Part shown: positions 770 through 29,021 of the stretch, one piece after another | How the letters are laid out: every line of letters begins with the position of its first letter | Numbering within the stretch: position 1 is the stretch's first letter | IMG/VR virus record: IMGVR_UViG_3300025305_002424 | Coordinates: 1-29,021 of that record | Length of the DNA: 29,021 nt | Strand: one strand, 5' to 3' | From: a virus | Notes under the pieces: model-generated | Told to the model about the DNA's origin: nothing | What the model saw: only the letters and a program-made list of their open reading frames with translations | Database searches by the model: none | Program-made: the position numbers and the translations under genes

Positions 770-3283
770 TTAAAGCGTCTTTATCGTTGACTGATAATAT
801 TTAACGCTAGCGTTTCCACTTTGCGTAGGTGCGATCATCACCACGCCTTTTTCATCACCATCCACATAGACTGTAAATGTTAAATCGAAAGATTTAGTAG
901 AACTGTCTAACTGTAAATCTCCAAGCCTGCAGTGCGCTTTGCTTCCTTCTAAATTAATGGAGGCAGTTTTGCTGCTTAATGTGAGTATTCCCGTCCTTGT
1001 CTCAACTGATATTTCTATACGATCAATATCATTTTGCTCTAGGTTCAAATATCCATCGTCATCAAGCACTAGATTCTCAGTGCGACTCGGTTTAAATCTA
1101 AATGTCTCTCTATTTGATCTTCCGGGGTACGCGGTTACAACTCCATCGTTGTCTAACGTGAAATGAAGTTTGTCTAATATGTTTAACACGTTGCTTTGCT
1201 CCACTCCTGCCACGTTTATTGTTGTACTGCTTATTTCGCTTGTTGCGCCTTCGTTATCAACTACCACTAGATCAAAAGTTAACGCTTGAGGGTCTAGTTT
1301 GCTAGGTGCGATAAATTTAGGTTTTTCAATAGTGTCACTATCTAAATCTACGCTATCTCCAGAAGCTTGAACCCATCCATAGCCTGATATACTGCCGTTG
1401 GGGTCTGGATCATAAGAAGCGCTTCCGTCTAACTGTACGAGTGAACCCGCCGCTACTGACTGATTAGCGCCAGCGTTGGCTATTGGGGGTTGGTTTGGTA
1501 TTTCTTCAGGCGCTGTAAATGCAGCAAAACGAATTAGAGCTGCCTCATTTACCTGCGTCCCTGTTTTTAAGTGCGTGCCATCACTATCGGTTTCTACGTC
1601 AACAACTTCGGTATCACCACCAAAACGGCAGTAAGGGTTATTCTCAATGATGTAATCAAATTCAGCGCGAAGTGTATCACTTGCCCCATTCTCATACGTT
1701 CTTGGAATATCCGTCAGATAATGAATACTTCCAAATTCCGTATGTAAAGCGTTAATCATTTCATCTAGCCAAGCACGTAGAGTAGCGCTATCTGTACCTA
1801 CGTTGGACTCGCCACCTAAAGAAGCGGTATAAGTAACACCGCCACAATCGGCTTCGGTTGTCTCCGCAATAATTCGGCTATTCCACAAATCATTGCTAGA
1901 CGGAACCCAGCGTTCAATACTAGTGCCACCCACAGCAACGTTAATAACACCGATTGGTTGGCCTAGCTTTGCATACTCAACGGCTATTCGAATCCATGTT
2001 GAACCACCGCTACTATCTTCACTAGTGGGGTCATTAATGTACTGCCACACCCCATCTTTGAAGCATGTTGGTCTAACCATACCCGAGGTTATTTCGTTAT
2101 TACGTATACTGTTCTGGGTACTTGCCCCTCTACCTGACTCGTTTGATTGCCACCATGCAAGCCATATCGGTGCAGCGGTTAAGTAGTTTGCGGATGCAAC
2201 AACGTCCGTATTTGTACTAACTCGCACTTTAAGGTTTTGTTGAACACGAATAATTATATCGTCTGAGAAATTTCCGTTGCTATCTGTTGGCATGGCGAAC
2301 CAATTACCAGAACCATCAAGTTCATATTCTGCTACTGCTCCAGCAGGTAGGTCAGTAATAACACCAGATACAGGAAAAATAGCCTCGCCATTTATGTCTG
2401 CTTTTCTTGTGTAATAGCTATACGTTTTACTGTCGAGTGTGATTGTGGGGGCTGCTGCAACTACGCCATCTTCTAACACAAAAAAACTAACATCGTCGGT
2501 GTCTGTTGTGCCGTCACTGCCCGTGGTAGTTAACCTGAAAGTGATTTCAGTTAATTCGGTAAAACTAGGGGCTGTAAATGTCGGACTAACCGCTGTGTCA
2601 TCGCTAAGTATTACGCCTGTGCTTGTAACCTCAGACCATGAGCGGCTAACCACGCCTGTTGATGCTGATGAATCTAGTGTTACTGTATCGCCAGCGTTGA
2701 TGTTGCTTTGGTTTGAACCCGCATTCGCTACGCTTGGTGTAGGCGTTGATGCAGCATCGTAACCGCCACTGGTAAACCCTATGAGAGTGCCGTGTTCGTA
2801 ATCCCCTGTAGTGTTAGTTAGTACAGTATCGCCTTGAACTCCGCCATCAAAATCGTGAGTAATGACTCCTCCGGGACTGCTATCACCTACTATTGTGGCA
2901 ATGCCCGACATCTTTCCTTGTAGGTGGCCTCCGTTTGAACCTCTGCGACCCCACTCCCTAATATCTAAAGGCCCAGTGGACGTACCCGTAACAGTGTTGC
3001 CGCCAAACGTGAACGTTATTTCCGAACCTACGCGGGTAATCCTACCATCTGTGATCACTGCTGGAAGAGAGATAGCCGGTGCATCTACTGTTGAACCCCC
3101 ATTACTCAAGCGTAGACGAGTTTCATTTGACCTAATTTGGATAAATGAACTGCCGCTACCGGAACTAAAAACATAACTGAAGTTGTTATCTATTTCTATT
3201 GTCGGAAGGGTTACATCAAAATCACCACTTAGATAAGCCGTGAAACCTTGTATATGACCGTTCCCATCAAATACTATTGCCAT
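770..3283 (-). CDS. Phage tail protein with SGNH-hydrolase (esterase) domain between PKD-like domains
   Basis: An 837-aa protein and the most distal large tail gene. The centre (about residues 370-590) shows the SGNH/GDSL hydrolase blocks in order: WQSNESG with candidate nucleophile Ser380, VGGTSI (451-456) for block II, GGESN with Asn494 for block III, and DGTH with Asp568 and His571 for the catalytic Asp-His pair. This spacing resembles the sialate O-acetylesterase-like carbohydrate esterases. PKD/REJ-like beta-sandwich domains sit on either side (about 184-270 and 600-692), each opening with an NAG-NQS motif. An N-terminal module of about 180 residues probably joins it to the tail, and a C-terminal beta-rich module of about 140 residues ends the protein. 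There is no signal peptide, as expected for a virion protein. The likely role is removal of acetyl groups from a surface polysaccharide during adsorption. The substrate is unknown. Confidence 0.82.
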   Translation of the reverse strand: MAIVFDGNGHIQGFTAYLSGDFDVTLPTIEIDNNFSYVFSSGSGSSFIQIRSNETRLRLSNGGSTVDAPAISLPAVITDGRITRVGSEITFTFGGNTVTGTSTGPLDIREWGRRGSNGGHLQGKMSGIATIVGDSSPGGVITHDFDGGVQGDTVLTNTTGDYEHGTLIGFTSGGYDAASTPTPSVANAGSNQSNINAGDTVTLDSSASTGVVSRSWSEVTSTGVILSDDTAVSPTFTAPSFTELTEITFRLTTTGSDGTTDTDDVSFFVLEDGVVAAAPTITLDSKTYSYYTRKADINGEAIFPVSGVITDLPAGAVAEYELDGSGNWFAMPTDSNGNFSDDIIIRVQQNLKVRVSTNTDVVASANYLTAAPIWLAWWQSNESGRGASTQNSIRNNEITSGMVRPTCFKDGVWQYINDPTSEDSSGGSTWIRIAVEYAKLGQPIGVINVAVGGTSIERWVPSSNDLWNSRIIAETTEADCGGVTYTASLGGESNVGTDSATLRAWLDEMINALHTEFGSIHYLTDIPRTYENGASDTLRAEFDYIIENNPYCRFGGDTEVVDVETDSDGTHLKTGTQVNEAALIRFAAFTAPEEIPNQPPIANAGANQSVAAGSLVQLDGSASYDPDPNGSISGYGWVQASGDSVDLDSDTIEKPKFIAPSKLDPQALTFDLVVVDNEGATSEISSTTINVAGVEQSNVLNILDKLHFTLDNDGVVTAYPGRSNRETFRFKPSRTENLVLDDDGYLNLEQNDIDRIEISVETRTGILTLSSKTASINLEGSKAHCRLGDLQLDSSTKSFDLTFTVYVDGDEKGVVMIAPTQSGNASVKYYQSTIKTL

Positions 3284-26438: not shown

Positions 26439-26711
26439 CTATGCCTCCAAGTCTATAAATTTGCCAGCCATCGCGTATGCGCTTGGTAGCGTTAGTTCTT
26501 CTTCGTCTTGAAGGTTGAAGTTGCGGTCAAATATTTGAATGACCGGGCCTGAGTCCTTTGTTGCTAGGATTAGGCTGTTGCTGTGGCCTTCCCATGATGC
26601 ATGTTCGTTTGGCTTAAGTTTGCCGCGTCCAATCTCTAGGGGTAGCGTGGTGTCCACTACGTCAAGTAGTGCTTGAACCATGGTTTCGAAGGTATTTAGT
26701 TGCTCTTCCAT
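26439..26711 (-). CDS. Acidic 90-aa protein, first gene of the non-structural cassette
   Basis: A soluble protein with clear acidic excess (about 16 Asp/Glu against 6 Lys/Arg), an N-terminal helix (EEQLNTFETMVQALLDVVDT) and a beta-rich rest. No family recognised. It is the first gene after the head morphogenesis gene and is preceded by a promoter candidate overlapped by an inverted repeat. Its stop is one base before the next start. Because the upstream gene ends in a toxin-like nuclease domain, this protein could be an immunity protein; it could equally be an unrelated early gene. Confidence 0.65.
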   Translation of the reverse strand: MEEQLNTFETMVQALLDVVDTTLPLEIGRGKLKPNEHASWEGHSNSLILATKDSGPVIQIFDRNFNLQDEEELTLPSAYAMAGKFIDLEA

Positions 26712-26731
26712 CTTGTTTGGCCTTGTTGGTT

Positions 26732-26775
26732 AAGTTCGGTTTACGGTGCTTATTGTTTACCCATAAACCGAACTT
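26732..26775. repeat. 12-bp perfect inverted repeat (candidate operator pair)
   Basis: AAGTTCGGTTTA at 26732-26743 and TAAACCGAACTT at 26764-26775 with a 20-base spacer, centres 32 bp apart. The right arm lies between the -35 and -10 of the minus-strand promoter candidate and the left arm lies at or just after the expected transcription start. A repressor bound to both arms would block the promoter. Pairing in RNA is also possible. Confidence 0.6.
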
Positions 26776-26780
26776 ATCAA
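26752..26780 (-). promoter_or_regulatory. Candidate sigma-70 promoter for the non-structural cassette
   Basis: On the minus strand TTGATA (26780-26775) and AACAAT (26757-26752) are 17 bases apart, with the start expected near 26745, about 35 bases before the ATG of the acidic gene. The inverted repeat arms overlap it. Location between a late gene and non-structural genes supports separate control. Confidence 0.55.
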
Positions 26781-26811: not shown

Positions 26812-28029
26812 TTACCAAACTAGGAACGTTCCACGTTTCACGCGGTCTTGAATGTACTGGGAAGTGTGTATTTCTGCGGCTTTCACGTAGTCGTATGCCC
26901 GGCCTCCTGCTCTACCATTTGTTTTCGTAGTGATCATGGTGACAGTGCCGTCGTCGTTGTTTCTGGTGTAGATAACAGTTCGGCGTGACTTGTGAAAATA
27001 AACCGCATCGGGGGCAGCTATGATGTTAGGAATGTCGTGAAGTTCTGCGTCTGTTAGATCGCTAGCACGCGCCACGGCTGTGTTGAGTTCTATCATGCCA
27101 GTCGTCGGTTTTATGCCTTGCTGATCTAGTTGAACCAGGGTGCGTTGTGAATATGTCGCTACTGGCCATACTCGTTCGTCGGTTGCACTTCGATTTGCGC
27201 TTAACCAGGACTTGAATGCTTCGTTTATGGTCGCGCTACTTAGCAGGTGTCCTACTTCATCTGCAGGTGAACCTTGTCGTTTCAGTTTACCCATGTATGC
27301 GTTTGCTAGGATACGCATGCGTTCGTGCCCGGCGTTAAAGTTGAAACTGGGCGCGACTCCCTCTGGTAGCTGCTCTGTTATTCCTGTCAGTGGGTTGGTC
27401 CAAGGCTTACGCTTTATATCGGGGTCTGGGCTTACCTCTAGTCCTTCGTCCTCTAAATCATCCGCATCCATTTGAATGGTACCGCATCGGCAGTTGTAGT
27501 CATTTGGGGGGTAATGCTCTTTCCAAAACGGGTGATCGACTGGTAAAACCAAACCATCAAACCGAGCATGTTCCTCTCTGGCCCTTCCGTCATCGACTGC
27601 GTCATACATGAGGTAAGGGAGGCTGTCTTTTACTGACTCTATGGCTTCCCATGCGCCTACTGCGTAGGCACTTTGCATGTTTGTTCTGAAAATCGTTTCA
27701 AGGCGTGCCGGGCTACCCAGCTGCGCGTTCACTACCATGCCTGTTTTCGGGTCTATGAGGTCGTCTTTGCCCCACCACCCTTTGCGCTGCAGGTGTGGTA
27801 CCAACTCTTTATTGAAATCTTGAATGGTTCGCCCTTCGGCGATCATTTTATCGATGAGTTCTTTAGTTGTGGCCAGCAGGTCACGGTCCATCATCTTTGC
27901 TACGGTGAAGGCATAGGCGTGCTCTTCGTTGATCATATCCTGCCAAGCAAAGGAACGACGAAGCCCTTTGTTTTGATAAAACGCTATTGCCTTCTCTGGT
28001 GGCAGGCTGAACGTTTCGCCGTTGATCAT
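26812..28029 (-). CDS. Mu F-like head morphogenesis protein with C-terminal BECR-type nuclease-like domain
   Basis: A 405-aa protein. Residues about 105-185 are the Mu F family core (PF04233): RTNMQSAYAVGAWE, then MYDAVDDGRAREEHARFDGL and PPNDYNCRCGT with Cys180/Cys182. F-type proteins are minor head proteins packaged with the portal. Residues about 295-400 form an extra domain: a lead of DLTDAELHDIPNII, then paired strands DAVYFHKSRRTVIYTRNNDD and TVTMITTKTNG, and a final AYDYVKAAEIHTSQYI. This strand order matches my memory of the phage-borne barnase-EndoU-colicin-RelE-like nucleases found at the C-termini of F-type and portal proteins. If so, it may be injected and act on host RNA. The catalytic residues are not certain (His, Arg and Thr are candidates). 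It overlaps the portal gene by four bases. Confidence 0.87.
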   Translation of the reverse strand: MINGETFSLPPEKAIAFYQNKGLRRSFAWQDMINEEHAYAFTVAKMMDRDLLATTKELIDKMIAEGRTIQDFNKELVPHLQRKGWWGKDDLIDPKTGMVVNAQLGSPARLETIFRTNMQSAYAVGAWEAIESVKDSLPYLMYDAVDDGRAREEHARFDGLVLPVDHPFWKEHYPPNDYNCRCGTIQMDADDLEDEGLEVSPDPDIKRKPWTNPLTGITEQLPEGVAPSFNFNAGHERMRILANAYMGKLKRQGSPADEVGHLLSSATINEAFKSWLSANRSATDERVWPVATYSQRTLVQLDQQGIKPTTGMIELNTAVARASDLTDAELHDIPNIIAAPDAVYFHKSRRTVIYTRNNDDGTVTMITTKTNGRAGGRAYDYVKAAEIHTSQYIQDRVKRGTFLVW

Positions 28030-29021
28030 TTACTTCTACCCTTAAATAACCCAGCCATACGCGCTGCAAACGAGGCACGCTGAATCTTGTTCACGTTCTC
28101 TGTGCTGGTTTCTTCCAAAAGACTAAATAAGTTCTCTTTGAGTGCTTCAAGGTCGCCGCTTTCCTCTGCTAGCGCGAGAATACCTTCTAGTTTTGGCGTA
28201 AGCATTTGGTTGTACGCGGTTGCTAACATTGCCGAGGCGCCATTAATGGCATGCTGGTCCTGTCGGTGTATGTTTGACTGCTGCGCTCTTAGACCTGACT
28301 CTGAAAACTCGGGGTTGTTTTCTTCGCCGGGCATTGGTGGTGGCTGGTTGGCGTTTTCGTCTACTATCCATCCGTCGCCATATGTATCTCTGATGTATTG
28401 TTCAGTCGGATTAAGTCCGAGGCTCTTTATTTTGGCGTCACGCAGTGCAATATCTTTAAGGTCCTGTTCTGGCTCAGTTCGTCGCCACACCTCTGGGTAA
28501 AATTCGGTTTCTGCAAAGTTTAAGTCAATGAGTTGCTTCACCACTTGCGTGTTGAACGTTTCACACAACAAGTCTGCATCAGCTTTGATCACATCGTCTT
28601 TGACGCCTGCATGCACTTCGGCTTGGCTTCGGCTGCTGCCGTTATCGGTGGTCATGGTTTGGCTAAGTACGATTTTGCTGATCGCAGCGTCCATCTTTTC
28701 GTATAGCTTTTCGTATGAAGCACTTCCTGACCTGCTGGCCTCGAGTAGTTCGACGTCAATATCGGAAGGCTTGACCACGCCACTATCAGCATGAATGGCG
28801 TCGATAACGTCTAGGGCTATGCTGCGCTGTTCGGCGTCGGTAAATTGAGATCGGCTAAGGTTCGCCACTGCAGTTGGCATGCCGTATTTCTCTAGATAAA
28901 TCATCCAGAATTTAATGCCATTTCGCTTAAAGAAGACAGGCCAGTAAAGTGAATGCGCCAAGCCTTCGCCATACGGGTTATCGCTGTGGTTCGCGCCTGT
29001 TGAAACTACCCAGAATTTATT
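28026..29021 (-). CDS. Portal protein, DUF935 / Mu gp29-like (N-terminus beyond the edge)
   Basis: The last 331 residues of the portal protein, which forms the dodecameric ring through which DNA enters and leaves the head. The frame is open to the right edge; a TTG at 28961 is not a real start because the reading continues upstream with typical family sequence (NPYGEGLAHSLYWPVFFKRN). Further DUF935 features are KFWMIYLEKYGMPTAVA and ISKIVLSQTMTTDNG. The middle has a Pro/Asn-rich segment, and the C-terminal part is helical and charged. The ATGA overlap with the F-type gene keeps the Mu gp29-gp30 order. Confidence 0.92.
   Translation of the reverse strand, partial: NKFWVVSTGANHSDNPYGEGLAHSLYWPVFFKRNGIKFWMIYLEKYGMPTAVANLSRSQFTDAEQRSIALDVIDAIHADSGVVKPSDIDVELLEASRSGSASYEKLYEKMDAAISKIVLSQTMTTDNGSSRSQAEVHAGVKDDVIKADADLLCETFNTQVVKQLIDLNFAETEFYPEVWRRTEPEQDLKDIALRDAKIKSLGLNPTEQYIRDTYGDGWIVDENANQPPPMPGEENNPEFSESGLRAQQSNIHRQDQHAINGASAMLATAYNQMLTPKLEGILALAEESGDLEALKENLFSLLEETSTENVNKIQRASFAARMAGLFKGRSK

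What the first reader, a model, noticed from the sequence alone, without database searches (positions are those of the whole stretch)
26812..27150. F-type head protein carries a C-terminal nuclease-like domain, a possible injected effector
Beyond the Mu F core, about 110 C-terminal residues show the strand pattern of phage-borne BECR-fold nucleases (barnase, EndoU, colicin E5/D and RelE relatives). Families of MuF-linked polymorphic toxins in temperate phages are described. The domain type here is judged by eye; active-site residues are not established. If correct, the virion delivers an RNA-cleaving enzyme with the genome.
Basis: partly seen in the sequence, partly recalled or inferred. Interest (0 to 1): 0.68.

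Follow-up and report, generated by a model that had tools for sequence, protein, structure and literature searches.

The report
Phage head protein with degenerate nuclease-fold tail
A phage head protein ends in a domain with the fold of a bacterial RNA-cutting toxin, but the residues expected to do the cutting are missing, as already proposed for the same protein of phage Mu, so it is most likely a retired nuclease kept for another job and not a new injected toxin.

Summary
The 405-aa F protein (window 26812-28029, minus strand) has a Phage_Mu_F core and a distinct C-terminal domain, residues ~288-405. The fold guess is right. AlphaFold2 gives a confident model (mean pLDDT 89), and seven of its eight best structural matches are BECR-type toxins (BrnT, YoeB, HigB, Cami1), though at low Z (3.1-4.4). 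Homologous domains in other F proteins match Pfam MuF_C, PBECR3 and PBECR2. Two parts fail. First, this is not new: the domain aligns with the C-terminus of ordinary phage Mu F and JBD30-type F, and Iyer et al. 2017 already named the Mu domain MuF-C, a PBECR domain they call inactive. Second, an RNA-cleaving effector is not supported. Most of the family (29 of 46 aligned) keeps a helix His and a Ser/Thr in the last strand. The window protein has lost the end of that helix with its Lys and His, and carries Ala-Ala where Ser/Thr sits. The adjacent 90-aa ORF does not behave like an immunity gene. The domain looks to be under purifying selection (dN/dS ~0.09, dS near saturation), so it probably retains a function, most likely non-catalytic. 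New member of a known kind; low-to-moderate interest.

The parts
26812..28029 (-). F-type minor head protein, 405 aa, complete
   Evidence: phrog_220 'minor head protein and DNA pilot' E 1.1e-89
27478..27855 (-). Phage_Mu_F (PF04233) core, residues 59-184
26815..27168 (-). C-terminal PBECR/MuF-C-like domain, residues 288-405, BECR fold, degenerate active site
27025..27081 (-). Residues 317-335: shortened N-terminal helix (TAVARA) and loop; the family's K...H segment (e.g. TLLKNQAAHPEL) is missing
26863..26901 (-). Residues 377-389: last strand; family consensus T-S-F-R-R-T falls on K383-A384-A385-E386 and following here, catalytic alcohol lost
26731..26776 (.). Inverted repeat (16-nt arms, 94% complementary, 14 nt between the arms) between F and the next gene
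26439..26711 (-). 90-aa ORF in the position where an immunity gene would sit; does not behave like one
28026..29021 (-). Mu-type portal protein (PF06074), cut by the window end, overlapping F by 4 nt

Best explanation
The gene encodes an ordinary Mu-F-type minor head protein. Its C-terminus is a degenerate member of the phage BECR clade (PBECR, MuF-C type). The fold is kept but the consensus catalytic residues are lost, so it most likely no longer cuts RNA. It is retained by purifying selection for a non-catalytic job in the virion. By analogy with SPP1 gp7, F would be placed inside the procapsid through the portal. The C-terminal domain would then act in head or portal assembly, DNA packaging or early ejection by binding protein or nucleic acid. 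Shown by computation: domain boundaries, fold, family, residue losses. Suggested by computation: purifying selection. Inferred: lack of catalysis, and the structural/binding role.
For: Whole-length alignment with Mu gp30 and JBD30-type F. AlphaFold2 model mean pLDDT 89 with BECR toxins as seven of the eight best VIA rows; an H-bearing relative's model (pLDDT 96) gives mostly RelE/BrnT/HigB/CdiA rows at Z up to 5.7. Pfam MuF_C in 10, PBECR3 in 9 and PBECR2 in 4 of 43 homologous domains. The family profile also hits canonical MuF_C proteins (E 4e-4 and 1e-3) and a canonical PBECR3 protein (9e-6), with no hit to shuffled copies. Of 46 aligned members, 29 have both H and S/T; the window clade has neither. 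C-domain dN 0.195, dS 2.06 against its nearest relative. The Mu domain is called inactive in PMC5512222. SPP1 gp7 is portal-bound, dispensable and aids infection (PMC6316719).
Against: BECR active sites vary widely and some members work without the consensus His (RelE; own knowledge), so an alternative site among the basic residues 346-383 cannot be excluded. dS is near saturation, so the dN/dS estimate is rough. All structural Z-scores are low (at most 4.4 for the window domain). The role in the virion is by analogy.
Confidence: 0.72

Rival explanations
1. Active injected RNase effector: the domain cleaves host, phage or CRISPR RNA after entering with the genome, using non-consensus residues.
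For: PBECR fold. MuF-linked toxins are described (PMC5576092). Iyer et al. predict active orthologues.
Against: K, H and S/T of the family consensus are absent. The one His nearby (H331) is Tyr in the two close relatives. No immunity-like partner.
Confidence: 0.15
2. Polymorphic toxin with the 90-aa downstream ORF as its immunity protein.
For: A small ORF lies downstream, as for 89% of MuF toxin genes (PMC5576092).
Against: L006 and L007 have 98.8% identical F but only 40% identical 90-aa proteins. The ORF lies 100 nt away behind an inverted repeat, directly abuts the following 417-aa gene, and has no relatives in the phage collection.
Confidence: 0.05
3. Purely structural extension with no nuclease ancestry that merely resembles BECR.
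For: Weak direct Pfam score and low structural Z.
Against: Continuous sequence relationship to His/Ser-bearing PBECR-like domains and canonical MuF_C/PBECR3 proteins.
Confidence: 0.08

Closest known systems
Phage Mu gp30 (F) with its MuF-C domain (Iyer et al. 2017, PMC5512222; Pfam PF18819)
   Same: Same head protein, same gene position after the portal, same C-terminal domain, His lost; described as inactive PBECR
   Different: Mu keeps a Ser in the last strand; the window protein has lost that too; about 31% identity; the window clade is a separate branch
F of D3112/JBD30-type Pseudomonas phages (JBD30 gp33)
   Same: Aligns over residues 7-402; helix/loop shortened to the same length
   Different: 28% identity; called a scaffolding protein in PMC11445458
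Pfam PBECR3 (PF18812)
   Same: Best Pfam hit of the window domain, positions 51-93 of 115
   Different: Score 15.9 bits, below the 30-bit cut-off; catalytic residues missing
MuF polymorphic toxins (Jamet et al. 2017, PMC5576092)
   Same: MuF core plus variable C-terminal extension
   Different: No known toxin domain, no immunity-like partner; closest in kind to their Ct_MAD class of proteobacterial extensions of unknown function (not tested against that profile)

Membership tests
Phage_Mu_F minor head protein | PF04233 above cut-off and portal-F gene order | tested here: met
   73.7 bits vs 29.6 cut-off; portal immediately upstream
[quoted passage not shown]
   Model elements E312-316, H317-322, then four strands; BECR toxins are seven of the eight best VIA rows, Z 3.1-4.4
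PBECR / MuF-C domain | Pfam score above curated cut-off | tested here: not met
   PBECR3 15.9 bits vs 30; Mu gp30 itself also falls below MuF_C's cut-off, 21.0 vs 27.6
PBECR / MuF-C domain | Profile-level homology to canonical members | tested here: met
   Family profile hits canonical MuF_C and PBECR3 proteins; window domain hits the profile of H-bearing members
Catalytically active PBECR RNase | His (or Arg) in N-terminal helix plus Ser/Thr in last strand (PMC5512222) | tested here: not met
   His segment absent and Ala384/Ala385 at the alcohol position. Arg321 lies in the helix, one position from the consensus Lys and not at the His position
MuF polymorphic toxin | Known toxin domain at C-terminus | tested here: not met
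   No Pfam toxin domain above cut-off
MuF polymorphic toxin | Adjacent cognate immunity gene | tested here: inconclusive
   Small ORF present but varies independently of F
MuF polymorphic toxin | Delivery into the host with phage DNA | not testable with these tools
   Needs virion and infection proteomics

The most novel reading that the evidence does not exclude
Virion-borne PBECR nucleases have been disarmed independently in several phage lineages (Mu, JBD30-type, the window's clade) and kept as non-catalytic modules, for example an RNA- or defence-protein-binding decoy injected with the genome. That would be a general shift from toxin to structural or counter-defence part.
Probability: 0.2. 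Interest if true: 0.5.

Novelty: new member of a known kind. Interest (0 to 1): 0.27.

Why it matters
It adds a further phage clade to the known MuF-C domain and shows residue by residue that it lacks the expected nuclease site. It therefore should not be annotated as an injected toxin. The set of H-bearing and H-less relatives gives a ready test of whether these head domains cut RNA.

Tried and rejected
PDB sequence search: no relative of the window F or Mu F. Foldseek alone gave no significant PDB match for either model; only the VIA second look brought out BECR rows, at low Z. Net charge of the domain does not separate H-bearing from H-less members, so it gives no RNA-binding signal. The 90-aa ORF as immunity gene: rejected. 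H331 as a catalytic His: rejected, wrong position and Tyr in close relatives. Mu transposase family not found, but the control was silent too, so it says nothing. YN00 dN/dS failed in all comparisons with the window; NG86 used, and it gave no dS for core and linker.

Full report
What was checked. The F gene lies at 26812-28029 on the minus strand and encodes 405 residues. Pfam finds Phage_Mu_F at residues 59-184 (E 2.6e-20) and only a sub-threshold PBECR3 match at 329-368 in the full protein; the last 112 residues alone give E 0.012, 15.9 bits against a 30-bit cut-off. PHROGs files the protein as minor head protein and DNA pilot. The portal gene overlaps its start by 4 nt.

Relationship to ordinary Mu F. 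tblastn against phage records aligns residues 9-377 with phage Mu gp30 (about 31% identity) and 7-402 with JBD30-type F (28%). The closest F cores, in Stenotrophomonas and Xanthomonas phages (52-55%), match only to residue 249-255 and carry a different C-terminus. Collecting F homologues from viral and genome contigs gave proteins with no extension, with this domain, or with other extensions up to about 900 residues. The C-terminus is therefore modular. An iterated profile found the domain in about 50 of 151 F tails.

Family and fold. The C-terminus on its own matches Mu-type tails at E 4.5e-7 to 1e-5. A profile built only from 29 members with H + S/T, excluding the window's clade, scores it at 23.3 bits; 500 shuffles reach 10.1 at most. 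Of 43 homologous domains, 10 match MuF_C, 9 PBECR3 and 4 PBECR2. The family profile in turn hits canonical MuF_C and PBECR3 proteins that score far above Pfam's cut-offs, while shuffled versions give nothing. AlphaFold2 predicts the window domain at mean pLDDT 89 and an H-bearing relative at 96. Foldseek finds no significant PDB match, but in the VIA alignments seven of the eight best rows for the window domain are BECR toxins: BrnT, YoeB/ParE, a Salmonella toxin, HigB (two entries) and Cami1 (two entries), Z 3.1-4.4. The relative's list is similar with Z up to 5.7, adding RelE and CdiA toxins. The Z values are low, so the fold rests on the agreement of sequence profiles, topology and this pattern together.

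Active site. PBECR families share a His in the N-terminal helix (Arg in one family) and a Ser/Thr in the C-terminal strand (PMC5512222). In the typical relatives this reads LSxxTxxKxxxxHPEL ... TSFRRT. In the window protein the helix is TAVARA and stops before the Lys/His segment, and the last strand reads YVKAAEIHT, so Ala stands at the Ser/Thr position whichever of the two neighbouring columns is chosen. The two close relatives L006 and L007 show the same. Twenty-nine of 46 aligned members keep both H and S/T. On a tree of F cores the window clade stands apart from Mu and from JBD30, and a minimum of nine changes in the His state is needed. These counts use a simple rule for presence of His in an alignment with gaps and are approximate; many inner branches of the tree are weakly supported.

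Constraint and neighbourhood. Between the window and L006 the C-domain has dN 0.195 and dS 2.06 (NG86; near saturation), a ratio of about 0.09, against dN 0.076 in the core. It evolves faster than the core but appears constrained. The 90-aa ORF downstream is an unlikely immunity gene: L006 and L007 have 98.8% identical F proteins but 40% identical 90-aa proteins, and the ORF is separated from F by an inverted repeat and abuts the next gene. A related virus contig, 47.6 kb, carries a phage integrase, and the window has an HTH regulator, so the phage may be temperate; this is inference.

What is known. Iyer et al. [quoted passage not shown] Jamet et al. [quoted passage not shown] SPP1 gp7 binds the portal, enters the procapsid, and is dispensable but aids infection (PMC6316719). 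JBD30 gp33 has been called a scaffolding protein (PMC11445458).

Conclusion. It is a further member of a described family, with a degraded active site. An RNA-cleaving injected effector is the less likely reading; a retained non-catalytic role in the head is the more likely one.

Noticed in passing
window 26439-26711; L006 and L007 4319-4591: The 90-aa protein after F is fast-changing: 40% identity between two phages whose F proteins are 98.8% identical, with a conserved C-terminal end. No relatives in the phage collection.
   Followed up: partly
window 26731-26776: Strong inverted repeat (16-nt arms, 94% complementary) between F and the next gene, without a clear T-run; possible terminator or regulatory site.
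   Followed up: no
L013, L014, L016, L017, L018, L020, L023, L025, L093, L099, L100: F homologues with C-terminal extensions of about 885-905 residues after the core, much longer than the PBECR-like tail; content not examined.
   Followed up: no
window 770-3283: 837-aa protein near the tail module with PKD-type domains and a SASA carbohydrate esterase domain, possibly a tail fibre acting on host glycans.
   Followed up: no
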